From positions 1 to 56,187 of IMG/VR virus record IMGVR_UViG_3300036852_000099: DNA of 56,187 nt. One strand, written 5' to 3'. Position 1 is the first letter of the stretch. Every line of letters starts with the position of its first letter. This document shows, piece after piece, positions 3,190-53,916 of the stretch. The DNA is from a virus. The position numbers were made by a program, and so were the translations under genes. Below the pieces are notes generated by a model. That model worked only from the letters and a program-made list of their open reading frames with translations, searched no databases and was not told the DNA's origin.

Positions 3190-3499
3190 TTAACCTCCTA
3201 TCTATCAGTCTACACACCGACTTGGCTACTTTGACGGGGATCGACGTACTCGGCTGTATGTCCCTGGTGTAGATGGGCAGGGGTATACTCATTCTCAAGT
3301 CCACCCCTAGCATGCTAACTGCACCCAGCAGCATCACCGGATACTTCCAGTGATCGTTGAAGTCCGGATTGTAACGCTGCCAGATGTACCCTGGTTGCAT
3401 GGTGATCGCTACCAGTCCGAACCTGTCGTAGATCAGCAGTTCCAGGAGACTGAGGCTAATCCTACAGTCGTCTGGCAGGTGTTCCACGATGGCGGTCAT
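3161..3499 (-). CDS. Hypothetical protein
   Basis: A 112-aa protein. The start at 3499 is fixed by AAAAGGAGGGAAG directly before the ATG; the frame is open much further upstream, but that part lies inside purB and the zinc-ribbon gene. It overlaps its downstream neighbour by 29 bases. A hydrophobic stretch at about residues 54-66 (YPVMLLGAVSMLG) might be a buried helix or a weak membrane segment. The function is unknown. Confidence 0.65.
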   Translation of the reverse strand: MTAIVEHLPDDCRISLSLLELLIYDRFGLVAITMQPGYIWQRYNPDFNDHWKYPVMLLGAVSMLGVDLRMSIPLPIYTRDIQPSTSIPVKVAKSVCRLIDRRLNADVQSDAG

Positions 3500-3791
3500 C
3501 TTCCCTCCTTTTGAGTCTGGCCTCACTGACTTTGGTGGAAAAGCACACCTTACACTCACTGCGCAGACCGTAGCGGCCTGCAGGCTTACCCTTACGGGTT
3601 CGACGGTAGAAATAGCGAGGGACTGCGGGGTACTCCAGCCCACAGCCCTTGCACTCGATAGTACGGGCACGACAGGATAGGCATACACGCTGCAGGTGCA
3701 GGTGTGGTCGCTCTGACAACCACCCTGCACTACCAGTGAACATGGCCTCCTCGTACTCGTTACCACAGGCACTGCAACTAGACATTGGCAT
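3462..3791 (-). CDS. Small zinc-ribbon protein
   Basis: A 109-aa protein with four CxxC knuckles (CSAC, CLSC, CKGC, CKVC), enough for two structural zinc sites, followed by a very basic tail. This suggests nucleic-acid binding. The start at 3791 uses the GAGGAAG within the end of purB, whose stop it overlaps; a second ATG lies at 3785. It is the gene directly after purB and is translationally coupled to it. The precise role is unknown. Confidence 0.7.
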   Translation of the reverse strand: MPMSSCSACGNEYEEAMFTGSAGWLSERPHLHLQRVCLSCRARTIECKGCGLEYPAVPRYFYRRTRKGKPAGRYGLRSECKVCFSTKVSEARLKRREDDRHRGTPARRL

Positions 3792-5175
3792 TGACTTCCT
3801 CTATAGCCCGAATGCAGGCTAACACGCAGGGTTCGATCACGTGGCGCTCGTTGAATGCCCCGTTCACATTCAAGCTGTCCGGCCAGCGCGATGCTATGAC
3901 GTGCCTCAGCGACTGCATGATGGGGTAGTTCTTCACTAACTCGCCTATGGTGTGGTGCAGCGTGGTGCGATCCGAGTGGCGTGTGCGTAGGGCATACGAC
4001 AGGATGGTGGATGACCACACCCGCGAGTCGTTGAATACGTCACTATCGTACTTCATCTTCAGGGCAGTGACCGCGTTATTCAGGCTGTCCAGCATGTAGG
4101 CCGTGATCGAGGATACCTGCTGCCAGACCACCCGACGCTGGGCTGAGTCGTCCAGGGTTCGCATGTCGATCTGGTCGGCTGTAATGCCCCATGCACCAGT
4201 ACACAGGCTGTGGACTAGCTGCGACAGTGACGACAGCTGCTCCCACGTGGCTGGGTTGTGCTTGTGCGGCATGGCCGATGACCCGACTACACCGGATTCG
4301 TCCCACCACTCGCCCTCACTGTACAGGAATCGGGCGGTGATGGCCAGTCGGTGAATAGCCGCTGCTACTCGGTCTATCAGTGCAAGTAAGGCGTACTCGT
4401 TGTGGCGCGGGGCAGTCTGGGTGGCGTGTTTGGCCAGTTCCATGACCGTTGGTGGTATACGCATGTGATCACACACGGATGCTAACACGTCGCGTTCGAA
4501 CAAGGTAGAGGATAGGTCTACCTCGCGACGGATGAAACGACGCTGGACGTGGCTCGTGCCAACTGCACCGCGCACCGACTTGGCCTGAACCTTGAACTTC
4601 TCCAGGTCGAGAAAGATGCCCTGGAACTCGACCATGTGACCCATCAGCCGGAAGCCCTGCGTGATAGGCTCGGCTACCTGCATGTGGGTGTAACCTCGGC
4701 ACGGGTAGTCCTTAGTTGCTGCCACCTGTCGTGCCATCATCCGCACAACCCGCCGGAGCAGGTGTCGAATCTCAGTGACAGTCTGGGCTATGCGAACCGA
4801 GTCGACCAGATCGACCACATCGCTGCTCGTCATATCCAGGTGTACAAGGTCGTGTGGCATCGAACCACCGTCCTTTTCAACTAGGCGGTGGACTGCCCCT
4901 TGTGCCAGTTGGCGCAGGGCTTCGACCTCGTGACCGACCTCGCGTTCGTGGGTACGGACTGCCCTTACTAGTGCGTCCAAGCCCAAGTCGAACCACTCAT
5001 CGTTGTACTCCAGCAAGGCTTCAGCGGTAGTGACGAATGACAGGTCGCTTATACCTGCATAGTGCTTGGACTGGCACAAGGCCACCATCGCCCAGACCTG
5101 CAGCATCAGGCTGTACCGTTGCCCGTCATCCCAGATGTTGTCCATGTCGTTGGTAGTGTAGCGGCTGGCGTTCAT
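3778..5175 (-). CDS. purB: Adenylosuccinate lyase (PurB-like)
   Basis: A 465-aa member of the fumarase/aspartase superfamily, close to the usual PurB length. PurB removes fumarate from adenylosuccinate (and from SAICAR). Visible motifs: HEVEAL near residue 82, TSSDVVD at 117-123, the catalytic THMQVAEP block with His164, the signature loop GSSAMPHKHNP at 298-308, and LDDSAQRR near 341. All positions expected for activity are present. The start at 5175 was chosen because ATG overlaps the upstream stop (ATGA) with AGGTGAGG 5 nt before; the frame stays open upstream to 5358, but that extension lies inside the neighbour. In a phage that also encodes PurZ, the natural role is to convert the dGMP-aspartate adduct to 2-amino-dAMP. 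That role is inferred; the family call is firm. Confidence 0.95.
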   Translation of the reverse strand: MNASRYTTNDMDNIWDDGQRYSLMLQVWAMVALCQSKHYAGISDLSFVTTAEALLEYNDEWFDLGLDALVRAVRTHEREVGHEVEALRQLAQGAVHRLVEKDGGSMPHDLVHLDMTSSDVVDLVDSVRIAQTVTEIRHLLRRVVRMMARQVAATKDYPCRGYTHMQVAEPITQGFRLMGHMVEFQGIFLDLEKFKVQAKSVRGAVGTSHVQRRFIRREVDLSSTLFERDVLASVCDHMRIPPTVMELAKHATQTAPRHNEYALLALIDRVAAAIHRLAITARFLYSEGEWWDESGVVGSSAMPHKHNPATWEQLSSLSQLVHSLCTGAWGITADQIDMRTLDDSAQRRVVWQQVSSITAYMLDSLNNAVTALKMKYDSDVFNDSRVWSSTILSYALRTRHSDRTTLHHTIGELVKNYPIMQSLRHVIASRWPDSLNVNGAFNERHVIEPCVLACIRAIEEVNANV

Positions 5176-5465
5176 ACCCTCACCTTGAAGCGGGGTACGA
5201 CGCACACCAAATAGCTCTGGCGCGGCATGTAGGGTGGGGATTCGACTACAACGACAAGACCACCCTCCCCCAAATCGCCCACGATCCTGCCCTCTGTCCA
5301 TACGTCCTCCGTCTGGCCTACGGTCTGGCCTCCACCGTCGATAGTGAGTACGTGGCATGGTTCAGTACTCCTAGCCCATGCCTGCCGCGCTGCATCGAAG
5401 AGGTTCGCACCGCCTTCTTTGCGCATAAACTCAGGTCGGTTGTCCGTGTGGTTTCCGTTGTTCAT
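5172..5465 (-). CDS. Hypothetical protein upstream of purB
   Basis: A 97-aa protein. Its second half (GRIVGDLGEGGLVVVVES) looks like a small beta-barrel of SH3 type, a weak inference. It is coupled at both ends by ATGA overlaps: to the gene before it and to purB after it. The function is unknown. Confidence 0.7.
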   Translation of the reverse strand: MNNGNHTDNRPEFMRKEGGANLFDAARQAWARSTEPCHVLTIDGGGQTVGQTEDVWTEGRIVGDLGEGGLVVVVESPPYMPRQSYLVCVVPRFKVRV

Positions 5466-9340: not shown

Positions 9341-9369
9341 ATTTTACCACACCTTGGCTGTCGCGTCAA
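9341..9369 (-). promoter_or_regulatory. Promoter of the leftward PurB operon
   Basis: Minus strand: TTGACG (9364-9369), a 17-bp spacer, TAAAAT (9341-9346), in the same TGTGGTAAAATGGA context as the other phage promoters. It drives the genes from 9312 down to about 2039. Confidence 0.85.
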
Positions 9370-10964: not shown

Positions 10965-10994
10965 ATTATACCACATATTGGCATATCGAGTCAA
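10965..10994 (-). promoter_or_regulatory. Promoter of the gene at 10916
   Basis: Minus strand: TTGACT (10989-10994), an 18-bp spacer, TATAAT (10965-10970), with the extended -10 TGTGGTATAATAGAAAT. Confidence 0.85.
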
Positions 10995-11020
10995 GTATTC
11001 TGGGGTGAGCGTAGGGAGAT

Positions 11021-11050
11021 CTTAACATGGCGTTCTATACTCTGTTCTAT
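11021..11050. repeat. Degenerate copy of the CTTAACA / GTTCTAT element
   Basis: Contains one CTTAACA (11021) followed by GTTCTAT at 11032 and again at 11044, here in direct rather than inverted order. It lies upstream of the promoter at 10965-10994, as the intact copies do for theirs. Confidence 0.5.
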
Positions 11051-11098
11051 GTGGTGGGGGATGGGCGGTTGGAAGTCCCGCCCTGGTCGTGTGTACCC

Positions 11099-11473
11099 CT
11101 AGCGGATGGGCGTTCCACGCTGCACTGTTGCTCCCAATGGGCGATACTGGTCGTCGCAGGTGAACTCGACTTTGACGTGGCCTTTCATGTTCATGGATGT
11201 GTATATCGTCCAGTCCAGCACCACCAGCCGATTCTCAGCCAGTTGGCGCTTCATGATGGCGATCTCGCGTTCTACCTTGGTGGGGTCGAAGCTGTCCTGG
11301 AACGATAGGAAGCGGGTGATGGTCGTGAGGCTACGGGCTGACTCCCACTGATCGCAGTCGTCGTGTGCCTGTTCCCATGTGTGCCGGATGAGGGTCTGCA
11401 TGACCACACCATCGGTGGTGAGTTCCACGTTCAGCTGCCCATTTTCCATTACTACTACTGTTGCTTTGTTCAT
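11099..11473 (-). CDS. Hypothetical protein
   Basis: A 124-aa protein; ATG at 11473 has AAAGGACAAATCGCC directly before it. The frame runs a little further upstream, but that part is the leader hairpin. The sequence is mixed, with a beta-rich start (KATVVVMENGQLNVELT) and a helical middle. No domain is recognised. It is a single-gene cassette with promoter 11522-11551. Confidence 0.7.
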   Translation of the reverse strand: MNKATVVVMENGQLNVELTTDGVVMQTLIRHTWEQAHDDCDQWESARSLTTITRFLSFQDSFDPTKVEREIAIMKRQLAENRLVVLDWTIYTSMNMKGHVKVEFTCDDQYRPLGATVQRGTPIR

Positions 11474-11493
11474 GGCGATTTGTCCTTTGCTGT

Positions 11494-11507
11494 GCACCAG
11501 TGGGTGC
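11494..11507 (-). promoter_or_regulatory. 5'-leader hairpin of the gene at 11473
   Basis: Stem GCACC / GGTGC with a 4-nt loop, between the promoter and the ribosome site. Confidence 0.5.
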
Positions 11508-11521
11508 TATTCGATATTTCT

Positions 11522-11551
11522 ATTATACCACATCTGATGCCATCGTGTCAA
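11522..11551 (-). promoter_or_regulatory. Promoter of the gene at 11473
   Basis: Minus strand: TTGACA (11546-11551, perfect), an 18-bp spacer, TATAAT (11522-11527, perfect), with extended -10 TGG. Confidence 0.88.
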
Positions 11552-11556
11552 TCTAT

Positions 11557-11595
11557 CTTAACACACTCTTAACACGACGTTCTATTGCATAGAAC
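11557..11595. repeat. Operator-like element: CTTAACA pair plus GTTCTAT palindrome
   Basis: CTTAACAC at 11557 and 11568 (11-bp spacing), then the 17-bp palindrome GTTCTAT-tgc-ATAGAAC at 11579-11595. It lies just upstream of the promoter at 11522-11551. Near-identical elements lie upstream of two other cassette promoters. Confidence 0.65.
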
Positions 11596-11602
11596 AGTGG
11601 GC

Positions 11603-12028
11603 TTATCGCCCACCGAACATCCGCGCTACAGCGGCTTTGTACATCGCGCCACCGTCGCGGTGAATCTTTCGGCCATGCTTCCCAGCTGCCAGCCGATGCA
11701 CTGCGTCGAACGCGGGTGTGCCTGTGTCCGCTGCCCAATGGCCAGCTGCTTGCCAGACGCGGCCACGACCATCGACGGTGACCAGTTCCAGCCCAGCCGA
11801 TTCGCAGGTGGCATTGTAGCCGACCAGGGTCATGCACTTGTGGTACGCCATGCGACGACCCTCGGCGGTGTCGCTGAACGTCCACACGGCTGTTTCCCCG
11901 CCTGCCTTCGGGTATGACCCGACTTCCAGGTGTTTGCGTCCGTCCGAGTCGATCTCGACCAGCGACACTACCATGTCGGCCATGCCGAAGAACGTCTCGA
12001 ACTTGGCGATGCTTGTTGACTTTTCCAT
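11603..12028 (-). CDS. Hypothetical protein
   Basis: A 141-aa protein; ATG at 12028 follows AGGAGGATCGCCAA. The first half looks beta-rich (MADMVVSLVEIDSDGRKH), the second half helical and basic. No family is recognised. It is a single-gene cassette; a small hairpin (GTGGGC / GCCCAC) covers its stop codon. Confidence 0.7.
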   Translation of the reverse strand: MEKSTSIAKFETFFGMADMVVSLVEIDSDGRKHLEVGSYPKAGGETAVWTFSDTAEGRRMAYHKCMTLVGYNATCESAGLELVTVDGRGRVWQAAGHWAADTGTPAFDAVHRLAAGKHGRKIHRDGGAMYKAAVARMFGGR

Positions 12029-12047
12029 TTGGCGATCCTCCTACTAG

Positions 12048-12068
12048 GGGAGCGGTGAATCCGCTCCC
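12048..12068 (-). promoter_or_regulatory. 5'-leader hairpin of the gene at 12028
   Basis: An 8-bp perfect stem GGGAGCGG / CCGCTCCC with a 5-nt loop, placed between the promoter and the ribosome site. Confidence 0.65.
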
Positions 12069-12079
12069 ATCACTCTTCC

Positions 12080-12116
12080 ATTTTACCACAGCTTGGGGTC
12101 GGTGTCAACCCCAAGC
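12080..12116 (-). promoter_or_regulatory. Promoter with an inverted repeat around its -35 box
   Basis: Minus strand: TTGACA (12103-12108), a 17-bp spacer, TAAAAT (12080-12085). An 8-bp inverted repeat (GCTTGGGG / CCCCAAGC, 12091-12116) brackets the -35 box. It may be the terminator of the upstream gene overlapping this promoter, or an operator. Confidence 0.8.
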
Positions 12117-12128
12117 CTTAGGGGTTCG

Positions 12129-12692
12129 TTAGCGCAGCATCTCCAGCATGGTGGCCAGCGCAGCTACGCAGGCTTCCTCGATGGCCACGACCTGATCCAT
12201 GTCGTCATCGTCCAAGTCATCGTAATCGCTGGTGATGATGTCCGCCCACTGCTCTTCGGTCAACTCACCACTGCCAATCAGCTGGTCGATCATGCCACGC
12301 GCTTCATCGTTGGTGAGGTTGTGGCTGGCATTCCGCAGCATCTTCGATGACAGGTACGCGACTTGGCTGGGGTCGACGTTGAAATCAGCTGCTGCAGTGC
12401 TGTAGGCTTCCACGTACCAAGCCTCGGTCACTTCGCCTTCGCTGATGATCTGGTCGACCAGATTGGCGGCTGTCACCAGGGCGGCACGTTCCAGGTTGGT
12501 GGGCTTCACGTTGTCGATCTTGTCGTTCTGGTTCGTGGTGGGTGTCCACTTGTTGTTGGACACCCAGACCAGCAGACCCTTCGACACCAACGACGTGATC
12601 GTGTGGATGCTGATGCCAGTACGGTGGCTGACTGCGCCTTCATTCGTGGCGATGGTCATCACGTGCTGTTGTGCGGGTGTTAGCTTCTTCAT
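12129..12692 (-). CDS. Winged-helix-like regulator with an acidic C-terminus
   Basis: A 187-aa protein. Residues 4-50 (LTPAQQHVMTIATNEGAVSH, RTGISIHTITSLVSKGLLVW) fit a helix-turn-helix plus wing. The C-terminal part is strongly acidic (DYDDLDDDDMDQ). DNA binding is inferred from the fold pattern only; the acidic tail might instead mimic DNA or bind a partner. It is a single-gene cassette with promoter 12744-12773. Confidence 0.7.
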   Translation of the reverse strand: MKKLTPAQQHVMTIATNEGAVSHRTGISIHTITSLVSKGLLVWVSNNKWTPTTNQNDKIDNVKPTNLERAALVTAANLVDQIISEGEVTEAWYVEAYSTAAADFNVDPSQVAYLSSKMLRNASHNLTNDEARGMIDQLIGSGELTEEQWADIITSDYDDLDDDDMDQVVAIEEACVAALATMLEMLR

Positions 12693-12712
12693 GGCGATTT
12701 CTCCTATTCACG

Positions 12713-12729
12713 GAGCGGGATATCCGCTC
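12713..12729 (-). promoter_or_regulatory. 5'-leader hairpin of the gene at 12692
   Basis: A 6-bp stem GAGCGG / CCGCTC with a 5-nt loop between the promoter and the ribosome site. Confidence 0.6.
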
Positions 12730-12743
12730 TCTTATCTACTTCT

Positions 12744-12780
12744 ATTATACCACAGATTGGGGTCATCGCACAACCCCAAT
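12744..12780 (-). promoter_or_regulatory. Promoter with an inverted repeat around its -35 box
   Basis: Minus strand: TTGTGC (12768-12773), an 18-bp spacer, TATAAT (12744-12749), extended -10 TGG. A 7-bp inverted repeat ATTGGGG / CCCCAAT (12756-12780) brackets the -35 box, as at 12091-12116. Confidence 0.75.
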
Positions 12781-12792
12781 CTCTAGGGGTCT

Positions 12793-13108
12793 TTACGCGA
12801 TTGCGACTACGTACGTCTCGCCATCGCTGCCGACGATGCTGTTAGCCTGACCGCTCTCACGGACGATGGCCACCAGGGCGACTACGGCTTCACGCAGGGT
12901 CTCGAACTGCGCACTGCTGTCGAAGCCCAGCCGGAATGACTCGACCTCGTTCACCATCTCGTAGTAGCTCACCATGTCGAAGGTCGTGTGCTGAACCTGC
13001 CGCGACTGTTTCGATCCAGGTGGTGGCCTCTTCGCCTTCCTTGTTCCAGAAGAGGTTGATGGTGATGGTGCTGCTGGTCGTGTTGGTGAGGACTGTTACT
13101 GTGTTCAT
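12793..13108 (-). pseudogene. Hypothetical small gene split by an apparent frameshift
   Basis: The good start at 13108 (AGGAGAAATCGCCATG) opens a 72-aa frame ending at 12890. Its last 35 residues are Arg-rich and look out of frame. The overlapping frame ending at 12793 (from 12975, no ribosome site) looks like real protein (residues such as MVNEVESFRLGFDSSAQFET). A one-base shift near 12990-13010 would join them into about 105 aa. The cause may be a sequencing error, a real mutation or recoding; I see no slippery site. The function is unknown. Confidence 0.55.
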
Positions 13109-13129
13109 GGCGATTTCTCCTAACTATCC

Positions 13130-13148
13130 GAGGGCGGAAACCCCGCTC
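13130..13148 (-). promoter_or_regulatory. 5'-leader hairpin of the gene at 13108
   Basis: An imperfect stem GAGGGCGG / CCCCGCTC with a 3-nt loop between the promoter and the ribosome site. Confidence 0.5.
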
Positions 13149-13162
13149 TCTATCTTATTTCC

Positions 13163-13192
13163 ATTATACCACATATTGGGGTATTGAGTCAA
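13163..13192 (-). promoter_or_regulatory. Promoter of the gene at 13108
   Basis: Minus strand: TTGACT (13187-13192), an 18-bp spacer, TATAAT (13163-13168), context TGTGGTATAATGGAAAT. Confidence 0.85.
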
Positions 13193-13207
13193 GTAGTCTT
13201 CGGTGTT

Positions 13208-13246
13208 CTTAACAATCTCTTAACAGGACGTTCTATTCGATAGAAC
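13208..13246. repeat. Operator-like element: CTTAACA pair plus GTTCTAT palindrome
   Basis: CTTAACA at 13208 and 13219 (11-bp spacing), then GTTCTAT-tcg-ATAGAAC at 13230-13246, upstream of the promoter at 13163-13192. Same layout as 11557-11595 and 16601-16639. Confidence 0.65.
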
Positions 13247-13258
13247 AGGAACTCCGAA

Positions 13259-13279
13259 GGGTGCACCCTATATGCACCC
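13259..13279 (-). terminator. Hairpin after the methyltransferase gene
   Basis: A perfect 7-bp stem GGGTGCA / TGCACCC with a 7-nt loop, 15 nt after the stop at 13294. There is no T-tract, so the terminator role is uncertain. Confidence 0.4.
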
Positions 13280-13293
13280 ATATGTAATCGGAC

Positions 13294-13994
13294 TTAGCTG
13301 GAAAGGAGGTAGAGGCGCTCGGACACATCCTGGAACTTGTCCATGCTGTGGTCTAGTCCGAGGCTCATCTTGCTATTCATCTCGTGGAGGATCGTGGCTG
13401 GGACGGGGATATCACCATAGAACGAGGCCACTACCGTGTTACGCTTCGCCCACTGTTTCATGGCCATCCAGAAGCGTTTGTGGTTGAACTCGCGATTCAG
13501 GTACTGTGTACCCTTGGGCAGATATGGCGGGTCGACGTACACCATCATGCCTTCGGGCGGGTTGTTGTCCCACTGCGACCAGCTGCAGGCTACGAAGTCC
13601 ACGCCCTCTAGCAGCGGCTTCTGCTTCAGTAGTGACCGTTTCAGCGCTGCAGCGAAGTTGATGTTGCCCTTAGGATCACGGGCGTAGGTGTCGAACCACT
13701 TACCACCGAACGAACACCCGATGTCTATGAAGGCGACTGGTGTGGCATATCGGCCAGTAGGCTGTAGTCGGCCTCGCTGATGTGTTCAGGTGGAATCCAC
13801 CCACCCTGGATGGCTTTGTACAGGGCGATCAGGTACTGGTTGGCATCGCTGCCGATGCGTATACCACCCTGGATCTTCTCCATCACGACAGCCGACCCTA
13901 GGAATGGCTCTAGGTACGGACGACCAGCGCGTAGCTCGTTGATTATGGGTGCGTAGTGCTTTGACTGTCGGAACTTCCCGCCCATGTACCTCAT
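13294..13994 (-). pseudogene. D12-class DNA adenine methyltransferase, frameshifted
   Basis: The first frame (13994-13725) has the D12/Dam N-terminus: MRYMGGKFRQSKHYAPIINE, then YLEPFLGSAVV (AdoMet motif I). The family's next block, IGCSFGGKWFDTYAR, appears only in the second frame, which continues through the catalytic DPPY (VYVDPPYLPKGTQY) to a normal C-terminus at 13294. The break lies near 13740, where one base seems to be missing. Joined, the protein would be about 232 aa and complete. These enzymes add a methyl group to N6 of adenine in short sites. As read here, the gene makes only a fragment without the catalytic motif. A sequencing error is possible. The start overlaps the upstream stop (ATGA). 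Confidence 0.85.
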
Positions 13995-14350
13995 TCGGTA
14001 GCCCTCCCATCACCGATGCTGAGGCCATTCCTGAACCTGTCACGCAGGGATAGACTGTTAGCGCTGGTCTGTTCGTATAGGCAATACACCTGATCAGGGT
14101 AATGGCCGGACGCGTCTTTGCAGGTCGACTCAGCCAGTTCACGGGGCAGGTTTCGAATGACCGGATGGGCAGTCAGGTCGTCGTACAGATGCCACCATAC
14201 GGTGAACAGACCGACCTCGCTCGGTGGTTCTTTCGGCTGGGCTTTATACTCACGGGCTAGACCGATGGCGATCTGCATCTGCAGGTCTAGCTGCTTATTG
14301 GCGTAGTTCTCGCGCTGCATGCGCTCTAGTTCCTCACGTAGGGTCGGCAT
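13991..14350 (-). CDS. Hypothetical protein before the methyltransferase
   Basis: A 119-aa, mainly helical protein. ATG at 14350 has AGGAGGACACCGACC before it; the frame is open further upstream, but that part lies inside the neighbour. A Trp-rich segment (LFTVWWHLYDDL) stands out. The stop overlaps the methyltransferase start by four bases. No family is recognised. Confidence 0.65.
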   Translation of the reverse strand: MPTLREELERMQRENYANKQLDLQMQIAIGLAREYKAQPKEPPSEVGLFTVWWHLYDDLTAHPVIRNLPRELAESTCKDASGHYPDQVYCLYEQTSANSLSLRDRFRNGLSIGDGRATE

Positions 14351-14675
14351 GGTCGGTGTCCTCCTCTGTAGGGTGGTCGCTGGGTAGCGTATTCTCCAGC
14401 AGATTAATCTCTTCGACAGCAGCATCTAGGATGCGCTGGATTGTTAGTAGTTCAGTGTCATGGTGCAGGATAGGCTTCCAGTTGCCTGCAGCGAAGTCGT
14501 AGTACATCGGCTGTTTGGCTCGGTTGCGTGACTGTGAATCGCGGACTAGGTAGGAAAGACGACGTACAGCCCGTGAAATGTCGCGGGTTGCCTGCAGCAG
14601 GTAACGTAGGCGTTCGTTGGTGGTGAGGTTCTTGTGTTCTTCGACTAATTCTTCGATGGGTCGTTCGTCAGTCAT
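14334..14675 (-). CDS. Hypothetical helical protein
   Basis: A 113-aa protein with ATG at 14675 preceded by AGGAGACATCGCC. It is rich in Glu, Arg and Leu heptad-like spacing, with coiled-coil character at residues 5-45 and 80-105. It overlaps the next gene by 17 bases. The function is unknown. Confidence 0.7.
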   Translation of the reverse strand: MTDERPIEELVEEHKNLTTNERLRYLLQATRDISRAVRRLSYLVRDSQSRNRAKQPMYYDFAAGNWKPILHHDTELLTIQRILDAAVEEINLLENTLPSDHPTEEDTDHADPT

Positions 14676-14693
14676 GGCGATGTCTCCTATAAG

Positions 14694-14718
14694 AAGGGCG
14701 ATCCCCATGATCGCCCTT
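14694..14718 (-). promoter_or_regulatory. Strong intercistronic hairpin before a ribosome site
   Basis: A perfect 10-bp stem AAGGGCGATC / GATCGCCCTT with a 5-nt loop between the stop at 14744 and the ribosome site of the gene at 14675. It is followed on the minus strand by CTTATAG, so partial termination is also possible. Confidence 0.65.
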
Positions 14719-14743
14719 GTGCTAACTGGTCTGTGGGTGTGTA

Positions 14744-15979
14744 CTATTCCTGGTCGGGCAGTACGAAGTAGGTGTGGGCGGTCTGGCCGATGACAGTGCC
14801 TTTCCATTCGCTAGCACCAAACTGGCCACGATCACCTTCGACCCAATGGATCAGCGCGTCGTTGCCATCTTTGGACAGGCGGAGCAGGCGTTCACGGATC
14901 TCGGCCTCGTCGCCATCACCGTATAGCTCGGTTGCAGTGGCGACAGCCTCTTCAAACGCGGCATCTTCAGCGGCGGGGTCGATAGGCGCTGGTTCAGCCT
15001 TCGCCTTTTTCGCGGCGGCACGTTTGGGTTTCGGGGCGGGTTCGTCACCGTTGGCTTCAGCTGCTTCCTTGGGTACGCTTTTGGTTGGCGGCAGGATGCC
15101 GTGTGCACCCAGACCCTTCCGGACATCAGCGTAGATCAGCAGCTTGTTGAAATCGGGGAGTTCAGTCCAGTACGTACCCAGGGCTTCATTACCCTCGATG
15201 GACTCCACGATGAACGCTGCCAGATCGCCATTGTCGACGGGATATTTGCCGTAGTTGGCGACGACGTACGGTACAGCCAGGGCGATGGTCTGTGCACGTG
15301 GGCTGGGCTGTTTGTCCTTTTTCTCAGGACGCGGGGCTTTGGCCTTCTCAGGCACATAGTCGGCCAGCGCCTTGCGGATATCGGTGCGGACGATCTTCTG
15401 GCGGAATTCACCCTGATCGCCTGCTTTCAGTTCAGTCCAGTAGGAGATGACTCCGGTGTCCAGACCTGCGACTGTCGATTCGACCAGTGCCAACATCAGG
15501 TCGTCGTTGTCATAAGCGACACGGGCATCACCGCTCTGCGCTTCGTACTGCGACTTGAACGCTTCCACTGTGCGGCTGATGATCTGGCCACGAGGGGTCA
15601 TGCCACCGGACACCGCGCTGGTCGTGCCAGGGATGTAGGCACGGACGATGCTGTTACGGGTGATGTTGGTGAGGGCACGTCCGAGGTGGGCGGTGACATG
15701 CTGCACTGCGCCATCGACCTCGTTGTATTCACCGTGTGTGCTGATTTCCAGGATCGCCAGGGCATCGGTGATCACGCTCATCGCAACTGCGTCGTTGGCT
15801 GTGGTCGCTTTTTCCAGGGCGGTGGTGAGTTGTTGTTTCATGTCTGCCATTTTGGTTATCTGCTTTCTGCTGGTATGTCCAGCTGTAAAGAACTCGTGTG
15901 TGTATCGGGCTATCGTTGCGTCGTACATTGCTGCCAGGGATCGGGTTGGGTCGTATGGCCATGCTCCTTTTATGCTCAT
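14744..15979 (-). CDS. Repeat-containing protein of unknown function
   Basis: A 411-aa protein if it starts at 15979, 29-30 nt after the expected transcription start; ATG at 15850 would give 368 aa, and neither has a strong ribosome site. After an N-terminal helical domain there are three related units of about 70 residues: LMLALVESTVAGLDTGVISY with WTEL, LAAFIVESIEGNEALGTYWT, and IRERLLRLSKDGNDALIHWV. They are separated by Pro/Lys/Ala-rich linkers. The first two also share a following D-(I/V)-R-K-x-L. No family is recognised. Repeat number and linkers suggest a binding scaffold, which is a guess. Promoter at 16015-16043. Confidence 0.75.
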   Translation of the reverse strand: MSIKGAWPYDPTRSLAAMYDATIARYTHEFFTAGHTSRKQITKMADMKQQLTTALEKATTANDAVAMSVITDALAILEISTHGEYNEVDGAVQHVTAHLGRALTNITRNSIVRAYIPGTTSAVSGGMTPRGQIISRTVEAFKSQYEAQSGDARVAYDNDDLMLALVESTVAGLDTGVISYWTELKAGDQGEFRQKIVRTDIRKALADYVPEKAKAPRPEKKDKQPSPRAQTIALAVPYVVANYGKYPVDNGDLAAFIVESIEGNEALGTYWTELPDFNKLLIYADVRKGLGAHGILPPTKSVPKEAAEANGDEPAPKPKRAAAKKAKAEPAPIDPAAEDAAFEEAVATATELYGDGDEAEIRERLLRLSKDGNDALIHWVEGDRGQFGASEWKGTVIGQTAHTYFVLPDQE

Positions 15980-16014
15980 CGGGCGTTCGTCCTGTTGTTT
16001 TGTTCGACCTCTCT

Positions 16015-16079
16015 ATTTTACCACACCTTGGGTCAGTGCGCAATGGCCGCTGTGAAAGGTCGATGTCAGTGGCCATTGC
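16015..16079 (-). promoter_or_regulatory. Promoter with an inverted repeat at its -35 box
   Basis: Minus strand: TTGCGC (16038-16043), a 17-bp spacer, TAAAAT (16015-16020) in TGTGGTAAAATAG. A perfect 9-bp inverted repeat GCAATGGCC / GGCCATTGC (16040-16048 and 16071-16079) overlaps the -35 box. Confidence 0.75.
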
Positions 16080-16119
16080 AGTCAGTGGTGGGGTGACTCG
16101 CGCCACCCCTATCCCACGT

Positions 16120-16515
16120 TTATTCGACGTAGACGACGAAGCCACCGTGAACGAAGTACACCACGCGCTCACTGCCATCGGCTTCCATGACGATGGTCAC
16201 TGGTTCGATGGTGGATGCGTCCGGAATGCCCCATTCACCCAGGAGTCGACGTTCCTCTTCCAGCCAGTCGGCATCGAACTCGTGATCCACGACCAGGATA
16301 TCACCGTCGAATTTGAATCCGGCTTCCTCACCGAATTCGGCCATGATCGCGTTGTTCCAGACTTCCAGCTGTTCACGTTCCAGCATGATGGCGTAGCTGT
16401 TGCTGTAACCACCGTTGATCTCTTCCCACATCAGCGGGATGAACGCTGGCATTTTGTCGCCCACCAATGAATCGGCGGCTGACACTTCGATGAAGGTTTG
16501 TGTTGATTTCTGCAT
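16120..16515 (-). CDS. Hypothetical acidic protein
   Basis: A 131-aa protein. ATG at 16515 follows AGGAGAAATCGCC; the open frame upstream is the leader. It is strongly acidic (FDGDILVVDHEFDADWLEEE), with no recognised motif. Small acidic early phage proteins are often inhibitors of host or defence proteins, but nothing here proves that. It is a single-gene cassette next to the divergent promoter region of the structural operon. Confidence 0.7.
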   Translation of the reverse strand: MQKSTQTFIEVSAADSLVGDKMPAFIPLMWEEINGGYSNSYAIMLEREQLEVWNNAIMAEFGEEAGFKFDGDILVVDHEFDADWLEEERRLLGEWGIPDASTIEPVTIVMEADGSERVVYFVHGGFVVYVE

Positions 16516-16533
16516 GGCGATTTCTCCTATCTG

Positions 16534-16551
16534 GGAGGGGAAGCCCCCTCC
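16534..16551 (-). promoter_or_regulatory. 5'-leader hairpin of the gene at 16515
   Basis: A 7-bp perfect stem GGAGGGG / CCCCTCC with a 4-nt loop between the promoter and the ribosome site. Confidence 0.6.
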
Positions 16552-16566
16552 TCTATCGATATTTCT

Positions 16567-16595
16567 ATTATACCACACCCTGAATCCGGTGTCAA
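16567..16595 (-). promoter_or_regulatory. Promoter of the gene at 16515
   Basis: Minus strand: TTGACA (16590-16595), a 17-bp spacer, TATAAT (16567-16572), extended -10 TGG. A consensus sigma70 promoter. Confidence 0.9.
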
Positions 16596-41032: not shown

Positions 41033-41461
41033 ATGCTGATGAAACCGAGACGACTTAGGAACGTAGTACGGCACGTGAACCGAGTAGCTGCAGTGATACA
41101 CCTACTCGTCGCACTGGTCGTGCTACTGCACCCATCCAAACCTAGCGAGTTCATTGTGTCAGTGTTGGGTGGATACTTCAGTACCCAAGCTCTGTCGTTC
41201 CTAATAGCTATGGCAGGGGTTAGGTGGGCGATATGGCCGATGACCTCATCCTGGTTGATGCTCTGTTGCCTGCCCATGCTGGTGCTTGCAGCATTCAATA
41301 CCGCATACCTGTTGATTGAAGAAACGCAGTCACTATGGCCTCCTATTGTGTACTACGGCTGTGGTGTCATCGTAATATCAGTTAACTGGTACTATCTACT
41401 GGAGACTGCAGGTGGAAGATTTGACGTTCCTATCGTTCCAAGTTCCGACACCCACACCTGA
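41033..41461 (+). CDS. Four-helix membrane protein, possible holin
   Basis: A 142-aa protein from ATG 41033 (GAAGAGG upstream); the frame also opens at 41015. Four hydrophobic segments: VIHLLVALVVLL, FIVSVLGGYFSTQALSFLIA, LMLCCLPMLVLAAFNTAYLL and YYGCGVIVISVNWYYLL. The N-terminus is basic. It lies at the start of the lysis region and could be a holin or holin partner. It overlaps the next gene by 50 bases. Confidence 0.6.
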   Translation: MLMKPRRLRNVVRHVNRVAAVIHLLVALVVLLHPSKPSEFIVSVLGGYFSTQALSFLIAMAGVRWAIWPMTSSWLMLCCLPMLVLAAFNTAYLLIEETQSLWPPIVYYGCGVIVISVNWYYLLETAGGRFDVPIVPSSDTHT

Positions 41462-44479: not shown

Positions 44480-44508
44480 ATTTTACCACATCTTGCGTTT
44501 CGTGTCAA
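44480..44508 (-). promoter_or_regulatory. Promoter of the membrane protein at 44443
   Basis: Minus strand: TTGACA (44503-44508), a 17-bp spacer, TAAAAT (44480-44485) with extended -10 TGG. The -35 box begins just after the helicase stop codon. Confidence 0.85.
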
Positions 44509-45949: not shown

Positions 45950-46232
45950 ACTCTCCCCTAATAGCTATAGCCTCTGCCTCATCAGCAGTTCGAATTAAAC
46001 CGATACGTGCACCTGCAGCTTTCCATTCCAGCAGCTTCATGCACTGAGCGATGGTCGGGTGGTCGTCATAGCTCTTTTTGGCCTCCATAGCGAAAGCCCG
46101 ACCCTGGTACGATCCAACGAGGTCTGGTTCACCCAGACGCGAGAAGGGTGAGCCGTGAATCTTGATCACGACACACCCCAATTTCTTTAATCGCGCCAGG
46201 GCAGCATCGACCACTGCCTTTTCTAGCGGCAT
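45882..46232 (-). CDS. VRR-NUC domain nuclease
   Basis: A 116-aa stand-alone VRR-NUC protein: GEPDLVG (catalytic Asp), then AMEAKKS (E-x-K), then a conserved Gln in PTIAQ and WKAAGARIGLI. These PD-(D/E)XK-fold nucleases act on branched or flapped DNA. It is complete and lies beside the SNF2 helicase. Confidence 0.88.
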   Translation of the reverse strand: MPLEKAVVDAALARLKKLGCVVIKIHGSPFSRLGEPDLVGSYQGRAFAMEAKKSYDDHPTIAQCMKLLEWKAAGARIGLIRTADEAEAIAIRGEYVGLTEILRIQDETLGTPEDRT

Positions 46233-46963
46233 TAGACCTCCGCTGGCACTTTACGCCATGCACCCAAGCTACGGGCTAGTACCAGGAGGCAATTCTCCAT
46301 GTCAGGGTACACCCACGTATCCAGGTCATGCGCTTCGACGTGCTTGGCTAGTTCGTCCTTGTCACCCCACACCACGACTGTCTTGCCCAGCGACTTGGCC
46401 ATCTCGATCTCACGGATAGTACCAAATCCGCGTTTGTCGGTCATGTTGACCACCATGCCCTGACAGCTGGCCAGTGCAGCGCGGTTGATCTGGCTGATGA
46501 AGACCCTAGGCAGCGGTTGGTTGTGTCCTACCTGGAAGGCGGTAGACGGGTCATAGCTGGTGATGCCATAGTTGGCCAAGGTCGACTTGGCGTGTTTCCT
46601 CCAGGTCTTGGCGTATAGCTCATCAACCGCGTCGATGCTCCCTGCCAGATAGACGGTAGGATGTGGGTGCTGCTCGTCGCCTAGGATCGGGATTTCCTCA
46701 CTGCCCCATGACCCATCCAGCAGCATCTTCCCGATTAGGCCGTAGTTCAGCACGTCCAAGAACGTATCCTCGATACCCTCGAAGTTAGGGGCGTATGCCC
46801 CTGGTCGGGTGAGGTTTAGCAGGCGGTGGATTTTGTCAGTCAGCCGGACTGCCACACCGTATACACCAGTCTTACTGATGTTGTCACTGCCATAGTCGGC
46901 ATTCTTGCGCTCCATCAGGTCGAGCGCGTCCTTGATGATCTTCTCAGCGGCGGCTTTGTTCAT
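46232..46963 (-). CDS. DUF1599 / nucleoside deoxyribosyltransferase-like fusion
   Basis: A 243-aa protein. ATG at 46963 follows AAAGGGAAC; the frame is open much further upstream, but that part lies inside neighbours. Residues 1-90 match DUF1599 (nucleotide-modification-associated domain 1): MERKNADYGSDN, then LTDKIHRLLNL, then DTFLDVLNYGLI, a helical fold reminiscent of MazG-type NTP pyrophosphatases. Residues 102-232 match the nucleoside 2-deoxyribosyltransferase fold: VYLAGSID and GFGTIREIEMAKSLGK, whose Glu fits the catalytic position. That family moves or removes the base of deoxynucleosides or dNMPs. Set in the PurZ operon, it is the best candidate for dNTP pool editing. Substrate unknown. 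Confidence 0.75.
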   Translation of the reverse strand: MNKAAAEKIIKDALDLMERKNADYGSDNISKTGVYGVAVRLTDKIHRLLNLTRPGAYAPNFEGIEDTFLDVLNYGLIGKMLLDGSWGSEEIPILGDEQHPHPTVYLAGSIDAVDELYAKTWRKHAKSTLANYGITSYDPSTAFQVGHNQPLPRVFISQINRAALASCQGMVVNMTDKRGFGTIREIEMAKSLGKTVVVWGDKDELAKHVEAHDLDTWVYPDMENCLLVLARSLGAWRKVPAEV

Positions 46964-47144
46964 CGTTCTGTTCCCTTTCATGTGACTCGTAGCAGTGTGC
47001 GTGAATGTCCTGGTCGTGCACCCAGGAGTATGCGATCTGGTCGACGTGCACATCGACTTCGTGCTTGCAGTAGGGGCAGATTGGGAATACGCTGTCGAAC
47101 ATGCCCTCATCGCCCTTGTCCCACATATCTCCGATGTTTATCAC
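46944..47144 (-). CDS. Small Cys/His (zinc-finger-like) protein
   Basis: A 66-aa protein with a GTG start overlapping the dUTPase stop. CPYC followed by HEVDVH and HAHC gives a possible zinc site. It overlaps the start of the DUF1599 fusion. The function is unknown. Confidence 0.6.
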   Translation of the reverse strand: MINIGDMWDKGDEGMFDSVFPICPYCKHEVDVHVDQIAYSWVHDQDIHAHCYESHEREQNDEQSRR

Positions 47145-47629
47145 TTTCCTGTACTCCCAAACCCAGCGCTACCACGCTCGGTGTCCTTAGTCGCGTACTG
47201 GAACGCGTCGATTGGCATGAACTCCCACTGCACTGGAATCACCAGATGGTGGAAAAGTATCTGAGCCAGCCTAGTCCCTTTCGGTACTATGACCGTCTTG
47301 CCGTTGGGATTGGACACACCGATGAATAGCTCACCTGTGTACCCCTGGTCGATTATGCCCTCCTGCACCTGCAGATGCCACGTGCGAAAGGTCGAACTGC
47401 GATTGGTGATCCGGCCATACACCCCATCGGGCATCCGGATATGCACCCCTGTGTGAACGTCCACAAAGCTCCCTGGAGGGATCTCGATGTGTTCGATGGT
47501 GTGCAGGTCGTAGCCTGCATCACCCTTATACTTCCGTGTAGGCTGGCACGTGTCCAGATTGGCAGGGGCGAATATGACCGGAGGCGGCGCTAGCACCCAC
47601 AGCGCAAATCGCCTGAGTAGTTGCCTCAC
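47141..47629 (-). CDS. dut: dUTPase
   Basis: A 162-aa trimeric-type dUTPase with all five motifs: DAGYDL (37-42), GRITNRSS (72-79), GIIDQGYTGEL (91-101), GTRLAQILF (118-126) and RGSAGFGSTG (152-161). It hydrolyses dUTP to dUMP and pyrophosphate, keeping uracil out of DNA and feeding dTMP synthesis. The GTG start overlaps the PurZ stop, so the two are translationally coupled. Confidence 0.95.
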   Translation of the reverse strand: MRQLLRRFALWVLAPPPVIFAPANLDTCQPTRKYKGDAGYDLHTIEHIEIPPGSFVDVHTGVHIRMPDGVYGRITNRSSTFRTWHLQVQEGIIDQGYTGELFIGVSNPNGKTVIVPKGTRLAQILFHHLVIPVQWEFMPIDAFQYATKDTERGSAGFGSTGK

Positions 47630-48723
47630 AGGTCTTCCCCTGTCTCGACTACCTGAAATCCCTCGCCACCTGTGCCGACCAGCGACACCGGAGTACCAAA
47701 CCGCGCTTCCACGTAGTCGATGAATGCACGGGCGGTCTGGCTGAGTTCATGCTCCAGGGTCTTGCCACGATCCTGAGGACTGATGTAGTCCATGAAGGTG
47801 ATCGCGATGGAAGTAGGTGCGTTTAACAGCACTGACTGGTCGACCAAATCCTCGTCCCACCGACCAACACGGCGTACCTTTTTGGTGACGGTGGTCTTTT
47901 CCACGACTGTCTCACCAATTAACTCCGACAGTTGATCCCACGTTACCTCATCCTTCAGGTCACCACTGTTCCCAGCCACACGGATAGGGTAGGTGCGGCA
48001 TACCAGCATTACCTGATCCACGTGCTGGGGCGGGATGCCAGCATCAGCGGCCATCTGTGCGGCGTTCGTGCCGTTGCTGGTCACATATGGCCACTGGCCA
48101 TGAATAAGGTCGAGACCACTGCCCTGTGTACCCTCCAGGAGGATATCTTGGCCGAGGTTGCGCTGCTGCTGCAGGTAGCGCGGGGTGTCGTCGTGGAGGC
48201 ACTGCGACAGCTTACTGCCATCGCTGAACTCAACATCACCCTCCTGTTTGATGTACTCGGCAACAGTCAGGAACTTCAGCGGATCGCGCATCAGGCGATC
48301 ACGTCGTGCTGCACCGACACCCTTACCAGTCGAACCGATACGCTGGTGTAGCTCACCCTGTACACCTCCTTCCTCGTCCATGTGCCATTGGGATATCACC
48401 CCACAGCGGCTGTCCACGATCAGGCGGTGGGTGAAATACGGGTCGATTTCCAGTATCTCGTTAACTTCGCGTTTCAGGATGTCCATCTCGATCAGACCAC
48501 CCCGACCAATCACCAGGATCGCGTTAGGGTTCACCCAGCCACATGGGACAGTCTGCATGACCCGCTTCACACCCTGGTGCATGAAAGTGTGACCTGCGTT
48601 CGTGCCACCCGTCCGGACATGGACATTGTAGCGATCCGCGATATAGGCCACGATTACACCCTTGCCCTCCGACCCAAACTGCCCTCCGACTAGTGCGAGG
48701 ACGTGTCCTGTTCCTTTAGCCAT
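47626..48723 (-). CDS. purZ: PurZ: 2-aminoadenylosuccinate synthetase
   Basis: A 365-aa member of the adenylosuccinate synthetase family, shorter than bacterial PurA (about 430). The P-loop reads GGQFGSEGKG: Ser18 stands where PurA has its catalytic Asp. This substitution is the reported mark of phage PurZ, which joins dGMP and aspartate (using ATP or dATP) on the way to 2-amino-dAMP. Other family motifs remain: GGTNAGHT with catalytic His45, GSTGKGVGAA, LEGTQGSGLD and a C-terminal SLVGTGGEGF. GGAG lies 8 nt before the ATG. It sits directly after the DNA polymerase and is coupled to dut. The call is firm; the base in the virion DNA still has to be measured. Confidence 0.95.
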   Translation of the reverse strand: MAKGTGHVLALVGGQFGSEGKGVIVAYIADRYNVHVRTGGTNAGHTFMHQGVKRVMQTVPCGWVNPNAILVIGRGGLIEMDILKREVNEILEIDPYFTHRLIVDSRCGVISQWHMDEEGGVQGELHQRIGSTGKGVGAARRDRLMRDPLKFLTVAEYIKQEGDVEFSDGSKLSQCLHDDTPRYLQQQRNLGQDILLEGTQGSGLDLIHGQWPYVTSNGTNAAQMAADAGIPPQHVDQVMLVCRTYPIRVAGNSGDLKDEVTWDQLSELIGETVVEKTTVTKKVRRVGRWDEDLVDQSVLLNAPTSIAITFMDYISPQDRGKTLEHELSQTARAFIDYVEARFGTPVSLVGTGGEGFQVVETGEDL

Positions 48724-48728
48724 TGTCT

Positions 48729-50483
48729 TTACTCCGTCATTAGTTGATAGGGCTGGAGTTCGCTCCAGCGTTTGCCGACTGAAACATCCACCTTAAACCG
48801 TACCTTCCACTCCTGGTCGGGCGGTGGTGGGATAGTGACCATAGTCTCTGCAGCGGCATCGATCAGCCAGGGCTTATCCTCCGGTATCTCCATTACTAGA
48901 CTGTCGTGAACGTGTAGTAGTTGGTGTAGACCCTCACCACGCAGGTTGCGCCACACGTTAGTAGCAGCAATCCGCATCATCTCGGCCACACCACCCTGAA
49001 TCAGGCCAGAACTGGCCGTGTTCTCGTAGTTGTGCTCATCGAATCGGCGCAGTCGTCCAGTGAACATCTGGATATACCCGTCGCGCTTGGCAGCACCCAG
49101 ACAGGCTTGGTACAGCCGCTTCATTTCGGGGTGCACCTTGTGGTACTGGTTCAGGTACTCCCTAGCCTGTTTGATGCTAACCTTCAGGTCATTCGCCAGT
49201 GCCTTGTCGCCTATGCCGTACTGCATCGAGAAGTTCAGCCGCTTTGCAGCGTCATAGTCGATGTTGACCCACGCGGCGGTTTCCTTATGGACGTTTACAC
49301 CGTTGTTGATCATGCGCAGCATATTGGTGGCGTTGGCGTAGTGTGCGCCTAGGTAGATCTCCGCCTGCTTATAGTCGGCCACCACGAACAGGTGACCAGG
49401 ACGAGCCACGAAGACCTTCTTGATGCCAGATCGCGGGTCGTTGATGTCGTCTTTGATCTGGCGTGGGATCGCCTGCAGGTTAGGCTCACTGCAGGACAAC
49501 CGACCCGTAGCCGTACCTGTCAGGTTCAGGTTAGGGTGGATCACCCCATCAGCATCCGCATGCTCCAGGAAGGCCTCGTAGTAGGCACTCTTCATTTTCA
49601 CATGGCGACGGTATCGGATGATCTCGTCTACTCCAGGTTTGTCGAGCGTTTCCAGGATATCAACAGCACTGCTACTCACACCAAAGAGAGCCTGCACCTG
49701 CTTGGGGCTGTTAGGGTTGACCGGATAGCCGACTATACGAGCCAGCGCGATCTCGGCCTCCTTCTTTCCGTCGATACTGTCGTGTATGCTCTGGCGTGTT
49801 TGTCGTTTGTCCAGCAGCATACCCCTGCGCTCAATGTCCACTACAGCCAGTTCGAAGACGTTAGTCTCCTGCCACAGCCGATACAGCCCAGAGTCCGCTA
49901 GCTTTTCAGCGTAGAAATCACGGAGTCGTCTGGTGTACAGTACGTCGTCCTCGGCATAGGCACTGACCATACTGGCAGGCAACTTCCACATCTGGCCTTT
50001 GTCACCTACGTGCATACTGGCACGGCGCTTGGTGTAGCCTGCTGCTTTCAGTGCGGCCAGCAGTTCTTCGGATTCATCCGCTGCAGTTGGGTCGATGTAC
50101 TTACGGGCGAGGTACTTCAGGGCGTGGCTGTGTTCATTCTCGTTGTACAGGTGGGCAGCTAACATCGCGTCCTCTATCCTGGTCGGGAACGCGAATCCTT
50201 CATTCAGCAGGTACTTGATATCGAACTTACCATTCCAGAACAGCAGGGTCTTGGGCAGTGCCAGTGCCATGCGCAGCGCGTCCATCTGGCGTGGGTCAAG
50301 GTTCTCGCCTTCCCCATGCCGGAATGGGAAGTAGTAGGACTCATTATCAGCTTCTATGGCGATACCGCAGATCAGGTCACCACCATAGGTGTCCAGTCCT
50401 GTTGTTTCCAAGTCAACAGTGATACGTTCGCAGTCCCAAACGTGCACCATCGCATCATAGAAGTTGTCGCTATTTACCAGCAT
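48729..50483 (-). CDS. Family A DNA polymerase, DpoZ-like candidate
   Basis: A 584-aa polymerase. ATG at 50483 has AAAGGAC before it. The 3'-5' exonuclease is intact: DLETTGLD (D24, E26), NGKFD (88) and YAEDD (176-180). The polymerase domain has TGRLSCSEPNLQAIP (327-340), motif A VVADYKQAE (D370), the O-helix KRLNFSMQYG (414-423) and motif C HVHDSLV (D527), where Ser528 replaces the usual Glu of HDE. It lacks a 5' nuclease. It lies directly before purZ. Polymerases in this position in known Z phages form the DpoZ group; membership here needs a tree. Confidence 0.92.
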   Translation of the reverse strand: MLVNSDNFYDAMVHVWDCERITVDLETTGLDTYGGDLICGIAIEADNESYYFPFRHGEGENLDPRQMDALRMALALPKTLLFWNGKFDIKYLLNEGFAFPTRIEDAMLAAHLYNENEHSHALKYLARKYIDPTAADESEELLAALKAAGYTKRRASMHVGDKGQMWKLPASMVSAYAEDDVLYTRRLRDFYAEKLADSGLYRLWQETNVFELAVVDIERRGMLLDKRQTRQSIHDSIDGKKEAEIALARIVGYPVNPNSPKQVQALFGVSSSAVDILETLDKPGVDEIIRYRRHVKMKSAYYEAFLEHADADGVIHPNLNLTGTATGRLSCSEPNLQAIPRQIKDDINDPRSGIKKVFVARPGHLFVVADYKQAEIYLGAHYANATNMLRMINNGVNVHKETAAWVNIDYDAAKRLNFSMQYGIGDKALANDLKVSIKQAREYLNQYHKVHPEMKRLYQACLGAAKRDGYIQMFTGRLRRFDEHNYENTASSGLIQGGVAEMMRIAATNVWRNLRGEGLHQLLHVHDSLVMEIPEDKPWLIDAAAETMVTIPPPPDQEWKVRFKVDVSVGKRWSELQPYQLMTE

Positions 50484-50501
50484 GGTCGTGTCCTTTGGGT
50501 A

Positions 50502-50523
50502 GGGGTGGTGGCTGTCCCACCCC
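50502..50523 (-). promoter_or_regulatory. Intercistronic hairpin before the polymerase ribosome site
   Basis: A 7-bp perfect stem GGGGTGG / CCACCCC with an 8-nt loop between the DUF669 stop (50532) and the polymerase ribosome site. Same placement as the leader hairpins at 10-16.5 kb. Confidence 0.6.
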
Positions 50524-50531
50524 AATAGAGG

Positions 50532-53887: not shown

Positions 53888-53916
53888 ATTTTACCACAGC
53901 TTGTTTCGTTTGTCAA
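53888..53916 (-). promoter_or_regulatory. Promoter of the replication / PurZ operon
   Basis: Minus strand: TTGACA (53911-53916), a 17-bp spacer, TAAAAT (53888-53893), context TGTGGTAAAATAGAG. It serves the genes from 53854 down to 44510. Confidence 0.88.

What the first reader, a model, noticed from the sequence alone, without database searches (positions are those of the whole stretch)
3778..5175. Phage-encoded adenylosuccinate lyase to complete the Z pathway
In described Z phages the lyase step after PurZ is left to the host PurB. Here a full-length PurB with all signature motifs sits in an early-looking operon, about 13 kb from purZ across the circular join. A phage copy may prefer the dGMP-aspartate adduct or free the phage from a limiting host enzyme.
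Basis: partly seen in the sequence, partly recalled or inferred. Interest (0 to 1): 0.88.

Follow-up and report, generated by a model that had tools for sequence, protein, structure and literature searches.

The report
Phage-encoded PurB-like lyase, Z-DNA pathway
This phage, which appears to replace the A in its DNA with 2-aminoadenine (Z), carries its own copy of the enzyme for the second step of making Z, a step usually credited to the bacterial host; other Z-phages turn out to do the same, including cultured ones whose copies already carry that name in public records.

Summary
At 3778-5175 (-) lies an intact 465-aa adenylosuccinate-lyase-like protein (TIGR00928 E 7.5e-44; AlphaFold pLDDT 89, best structural matches all PurB) that keeps the catalytic residues and most phosphate contacts. 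The same genome has a Ser-type PurZ, a family-A polymerase and a DutZ-like protein. It most likely releases fumarate from the PurZ product to give dZMP; this is inferred, no assay exists. In IMG/VR, 7 of 50 PurZ-bearing records carry PurB and 44 of 80 PurB-bearing records carry PurZ/PurA (32 Ser-type), against 0 of 50 random records for each. Trees imply repeated recruitment; 28 records of the window's close PurZ relatives show none. The window enzyme is extremely diverged (at most 26% identity) and below NCBI's PurB cut-off, so 'PurB-like' is the safe name. Preference for the Z precursor is untested, and no Z-specific residue signature was found. A solid, moderate finding: a diverged member of a little-described class.

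The parts
3778..5175 (-). PurB-like adenylosuccinate lyase, 465 aa
   Evidence: TIGR00928 E 7.5e-44, Lyase_1 E 3e-19; catalytic residues kept; AF2 model pLDDT 89, top structural matches all adenylosuccinate lyases
9341..9369 (-). sigma70-type extended -10 promoter (TTGACG-N-TGTGGTAAAAT) heading the gene run that contains the lyase
   Evidence: pattern search, 11 of 12 such sites on the minus strand; repeat family D1
5172..5465 (-). small gene whose stop overlaps the lyase start codon (ATGA)
   Evidence: ORF list; no credible Pfam match
3462..3791 (-). small Cys-rich protein overlapping the lyase 3' end
   Evidence: ORF list; no Pfam match
47626..48723 (-). PurZ, 2-amino-adenylosuccinate synthetase (Ser at the PurA Asp13 position, GSEGKG)
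   Evidence: NF038379 E 4.7e-72 (under cut-off); groups with Ser-type PurZ and apart from PurA, SH-aLRT 100
48729..50525 (-). family-A DNA polymerase with 3'-5' exonuclease, candidate DpoZ
   Evidence: Pfam DNA_pol_A E 1.3e-62; NF038380 DpoZ_1 200 bits, under cut-off 500
47141..47629 (-). DutZ-like dUTPase-fold protein
   Evidence: dUTPase E 8.7e-26; 40% over 136 columns to Ghobes gp55, taken here to be its DutZ
46232..47110 (-). DUF1599 plus nucleoside deoxyribosyltransferase-like domain (DmtZ-like candidate)
   Evidence: Pfam Nuc_deoxyrib_tr E 3e-6 and DUF1599 E 5e-4, both under cut-off; E 0.012 to Ghobes gp53
53888..53916 (-). same promoter type upstream of the purZ/polymerase operon

Best explanation
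The gene encodes a catalytically competent PurB-type lyase that the phage uses for the second step of its Z pathway. PurZ joins aspartate to dGMP; this lyase then splits fumarate off the resulting N6-succino-2-amino-2'-deoxyadenylate to give dZMP, which kinases take to dZTP for the phage polymerase. It acts by the general acid-base beta-elimination of the fumarase/aspartase superfamily (Ser on the mobile loop as base, His164 as acid) in a homotetramer. Shown here: presence, fold, conserved catalytic residues, the PurZ gene set in the same genome, and non-random co-occurrence of PurB with PurZ in viruses. Inferred: activity, substrate, oligomeric state and benefit.
For: Family and fold. SaPurB positions R4, Y5, H68, S94, H141, Q212, S262, S263, K268, N270, E275, R301, S306, R310 are all kept (roles from PMC2917274). 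Ser-type PurZ, polymerase, DutZ-like and NDT-like genes in one operon. PurB in 7/50 PurZ records against 0/50 random records, p 0.012; PurZ/PurA in 44/80 PurB records (32 Ser-type) against 0/50, p 1e-12. In G031 and G037 the order is purZ, purB, DmtZ/DutZ-like fusion; in G033 the two open frames lie about 60 bp apart. Annotated in Hiyaa, Galactica, Ghobes, Archimedes and MaF61, all with PurZ.
Against: Score is under NCBI's PurB equivalog cut-off (150 vs 326 bits). Longest branch in the tree (3.76 changes per column). Three changes beside the active site are rare or unique among 141 aligned PurBs (SaPurB R139Y, G142M, D302T). No PurB in 28 records of its nearest PurZ relatives, though many are fragments. 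The lyase is in a different operon from purZ. PurB/PurZ closeness is not above chance over all records (8 within 2 kb, about 8 expected). The 80-record PurB set was found with an alignment rich in Z-phage PurBs, so 44/80 overstates the true rate. No activity data.
Confidence: 0.78

Rival explanations
1. An auxiliary purine gene: the lyase boosts ordinary adenylosuccinate or SAICAR cleavage to raise host purine flux, and its presence beside PurZ is incidental.
For: Bacterial PurB acts on both substrates (PMC2917274). 36 of 80 PurB-bearing viral records show no PurZ/PurA and 12 carry Asp-type PurA instead.
Against: No other purine-synthesis gene among the window proteins scanned; strong PurZ association against random viral records; PurB sits inside the Z gene cluster in several phages.
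Confidence: 0.12
2. A different member of the fumarase/aspartase superfamily acting on another adduct, for example in a further base modification, rather than on the PurZ product.
For: Extreme divergence; structural scores for CMLE and fumarate lyase (Z about 33) are nearly as high as for PurB; unusual residues next to the catalytic His and in the HKRNP motif.
Against: PurB profile scores far above CMLE and argininosuccinate lyase (150 vs 64 and 25 bits); the residues reported to contact the AMP phosphate (R4, Y5, S306, R310) are all kept.
Confidence: 0.06
3. A decaying or inactive copy.
For: Long branch and rare substitutions.
Against: Intact frame of 465 codons; catalytic residues fixed despite about 75-80% sequence divergence, which argues for maintained selection.
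Confidence: 0.04

Closest known systems
PurB-like adenylosuccinate lyases of Streptomyces phages (Hiyaa gp76, Galactica gp75) and Gordonia phages (Ghobes gp36, Archimedes gp38)
   Same: Fumarase-superfamily lyase in phages that also encode Ser-type PurZ; catalytic motifs kept
   Different: Only 23-25% identical to the window protein; different branches of the PurB tree; already labelled PurB-like in GenBank
Cellular PurB / ADSL (EC 4.3.2.2)
   Same: Fold (VIA Z about 34-35 over 410-430 residues), catalytic residues, AMP-phosphate contacts
   Different: At most 26% identity in the tree set; under the TIGR00928 cut-off; SaPurB D69 reads E (0 of 73 cellular sequences), R269 reads H, G142 reads M
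Described Z-DNA pathway of PurZ0 phages (PurZ0, DutZ, DmtZ, DpoZ-1; PMC12884076)
   Same: The window has PurZ, a DutZ-like protein, an NDT-like domain and a PolA-family polymerase together
   Different: PMC12884076 never mentions PurB or a lyase; PMC12783734 calls the lyase bacterial; here it is phage-encoded

Membership tests
PurB (adenylosuccinate lyase) | Fumarase/aspartase superfamily fold | tested here: met
   AF2 pLDDT 89, pTM 0.90; Foldseek top 49 rows all adenylosuccinate lyases; VIA Z 35.0, rmsd 3.5, 432 residues to 5nx9
PurB (adenylosuccinate lyase) | Catalytic residues (SaPurB H68, H141, S262, K268, E275) | tested here: met
   All present; roles from PMC2917274
PurB (adenylosuccinate lyase) | AMP-phosphate contacts (R4, Y5, S306, R310) | tested here: met
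   All present; the further human R303 contact (PMC6301967) is His here
PurB (adenylosuccinate lyase) | NCBIfam TIGR00928 equivalog cut-off 326 bits | tested here: not met
   150 bits; hence 'PurB-like', not 'PurB'. Other Z-phage lyases also fall short (G031, G033, G037)
PurB (adenylosuccinate lyase) | Cleaves SAMP and SAICAR | not testable with these tools
   needs assay
PurZ | Ser/Gly instead of Asp13 | tested here: met
   GSEGKG
PurZ | Grouping with PurZ, not PurA | tested here: met
   SH-aLRT 100
PurZ | NF038379 cut-off 300 bits | tested here: not met
   242.7 bits
DpoZ | NF038380 cut-off 500 bits | tested here: not met
   199.9 bits; best called a PolA-family polymerase
DutZ | Homology to a characterised DutZ | tested here: met
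   40% over 136 columns to Ghobes gp55; that gp55 is the DutZ of PMC12884076 is inferred from its place and fold; activity not tested
DmtZ | Homology to characterised DmtZ | tested here: inconclusive
   E 0.012 to Ghobes gp53; NDT fold family by Pfam, under cut-off

The most novel reading that the evidence does not exclude
Z-phages have repeatedly recruited lyases and tuned them to the 2-amino-2'-deoxy substrate, so that the phage enzyme works poorly on host SAMP and SAICAR and frees Z synthesis from host PurB; the window enzyme would be the most diverged case.
Probability: 0.3. Interest if true: 0.7.

Novelty: new variant of a known kind. Interest (0 to 1): 0.5.

Why it matters
The lyase is the step that descriptions of the Z pathway leave to the host. 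Finding it repeatedly encoded by Z-phages, in cultured phages too, suggests that host PurB is sometimes limiting or unsuited. It gives a testable question with phages already in laboratories (Hiyaa, Ghobes) and candidate enzymes for making Z-DNA precursors.

Tried and rejected
1) Z-specific residue signatures. SaPurB D69 to E occurs in 16 of 68 viral and 0 of 73 cellular PurBs, but more often in viruses with Asp-type PurA (7/12) than in Z-phages (6/37), so it is not Z-specific. The HKRNP Arg/Lys is lost in 18 of 38 Z-phage lyases against 4 of 73 cellular, but not significantly more than in other viral PurBs (p 0.13), and in human ADSL it contacts the phosphate (PMC6301967). These counts ignore shared ancestry, and the cellular set is the 80 loci nearest to the window protein. 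2) Closeness of purB to purZ as a statistical argument: not above chance overall. 3) PurB hits in Listeria, Staphylococcus, Enterococcus and human-fecal 'phage' records: no annotation, many short or unverified, treated as probable bacterial DNA. Microcystis MaAM05 lies among bacterial-looking genes and has no PurZ. 4) Close relatives of the window lyase in IMG/VR: none. 5) Start at 5358 (526 aa): rejected in favour of 5175.

Full report
WHAT IS THERE. The minus strand at 3778-5175 encodes 465 aa matching Lyase_1 (E 3e-19) and NCBIfam purB (E 7.5e-44, 150 bits, under the 326-bit cut-off). phmmer against the PDB lists adenylosuccinate lyases first. The AlphaFold2 model from 49 aligned sequences has pLDDT 89 and pTM 0.90; the first 49 Foldseek rows are all adenylosuccinate lyases and VIA-align gives Z 35.0 to ADSL 5nx9. 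Related superfamily members such as CMLE score nearly as well (Z 32.9), so the fold alone does not fix the reaction; sequence does better (CMLE 64 bits, argininosuccinate lyase 25 bits).

ACTIVE SITE. With Staphylococcus PurB numbering (roles from PMC2917274), the window protein keeps R4, Y5, H68, S94, H141, Q212, S262, S263, K268, N270, E275, R301, S306 and R310. It departs at D69 (E), R139 (Y), G142 (M), R269 (H) and D302 (T). The C-terminal phosphate motif RTLDDSAQRR resembles eukaryotic ADSL (RSLDDSAIRR in Schistosoma). I therefore expect an active enzyme on a nucleotide 5'-monophosphate; activity itself is not shown.

CONTEXT. The record is a 56,187-base IMG/VR virus. A minus-strand frame runs across its ends, consistent with a circular map. 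Eleven of twelve promoters of the TTGAC-N-TGTGGTAAAAT/TATAAT type are on the minus strand; one at 9341-9369 heads the run of small overlapping genes that contains the lyase, another at 53888-53916 lies upstream of the replication operon with polymerase, PurZ, DutZ-like and DUF1599/NDT-like genes. PurZ has Ser in place of Asp13 and groups with Ser-type PurZ, apart from PurA, at SH-aLRT 100. All 80 PurZ loci fetched from IMG/VR are Ser-type as well.

IS IT KNOWN? Papers held here say the same: PMC12783734 names the lyase bacterial, and PMC12884076 never mentions PurB; no paper found describes a phage PurB in this role, though most subscription papers are not in that library. GenBank annotation is ahead of the papers: Streptomyces phages Hiyaa, Galactica, Keanu and Spocter, and Gordonia phages Ghobes, Archimedes, Frizzle and Sapo carry 'PurB-like adenylosuccinate lyase' or similar, and Flavobacterium phage MaF61 has a 'putative adenosuccinate lyase'. 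All of these have a PurZ-family gene, Ser-type where I read the motif. PurB-like hits did not extend to the Arthrobacter, Vibrio and Microbacterium PurZ phages.

CO-OCCURRENCE. Starting from PurZ, 7 of 50 IMG/VR records carry PurB. Starting from PurB, 44 of 80 carry PF00709, 32 with Ser-type and 12 with Asp-type motifs. Fifty records drawn with an arbitrary 14-mer gave 0 for each gene; p = 0.012 and 1e-12. The first test is the cleaner one, since the PurB search alignment was rich in Z-phage sequences. Records may be fragments, so true rates may be higher. In G031 and G037 the order is purZ, purB, DmtZ/DutZ-like fusion, and in G033 the purZ and purB open frames are about 60 bp apart. Across all 37 records, however, closeness is not above chance.

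ORIGIN. On the PurZ tree the PurB label needs 10 changes, at least 5 forced by starred branches; on the PurB tree the Z-phage label needs 13, at least 7 forced. So lyases were gained (or lost) repeatedly. The window sits among PurZ relatives with no detected PurB and its lyase has the longest branch of all; its placement, loosely with Z-phage record L144, is unsure.

MECHANISM. PurZ makes N6-succino-2-amino-dAMP from dGMP and aspartate; the lyase removes fumarate to give dZMP; kinases and the phage polymerase follow. The first and last steps rest on published Z biology; the lyase step is inferred from family, residues and co-occurrence. Whether it prefers the Z precursor is open: the two candidate residue signatures examined were not Z-specific.

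VERDICT. Observation confirmed; interpretation partly supported. The gene is a new, strongly diverged and apparently independent case of a class (phage-encoded PurB-like lyase in PurZ phages) that is visible in public annotation but, in the papers I could search, not described.

Noticed in passing
18830-23284 (+): 1484-aa protein joining a portal domain, a 2'-5' RNA ligase-like (2H phosphodiesterase) domain and a Mu F-like minor head domain.
   Followed up: no
41412-42056 (+): Response-regulator receiver domain in the structural-gene region (E 8e-10).
   Followed up: no
46232-47110 (-): DUF1599 fused to a nucleoside deoxyribosyltransferase-like domain, next to the DutZ-like gene; may be a new arrangement of a DmtZ-like enzyme.
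   Followed up: partly
L277, L280, L283, L290, L311: Large-phage clade of PurZ-like proteins with a GSSGKG motif, all in records with PurB; L283 has a long insert that looks intein-like.
   Followed up: partly
L270-L276, L300-L304: Twelve PurB-bearing viral records carry Asp-type PurA rather than PurZ, hinting at a separate use of the PurA-PurB pair by viruses.
   Followed up: no
1660-1688, 9341-9369, 10965-16595, 44480-44508, 53888-53916 (-): A family of near-identical promoters, TTGAC-N-TGTGGTAAAAT or TATAAT, almost all on the minus strand.
   Followed up: partly
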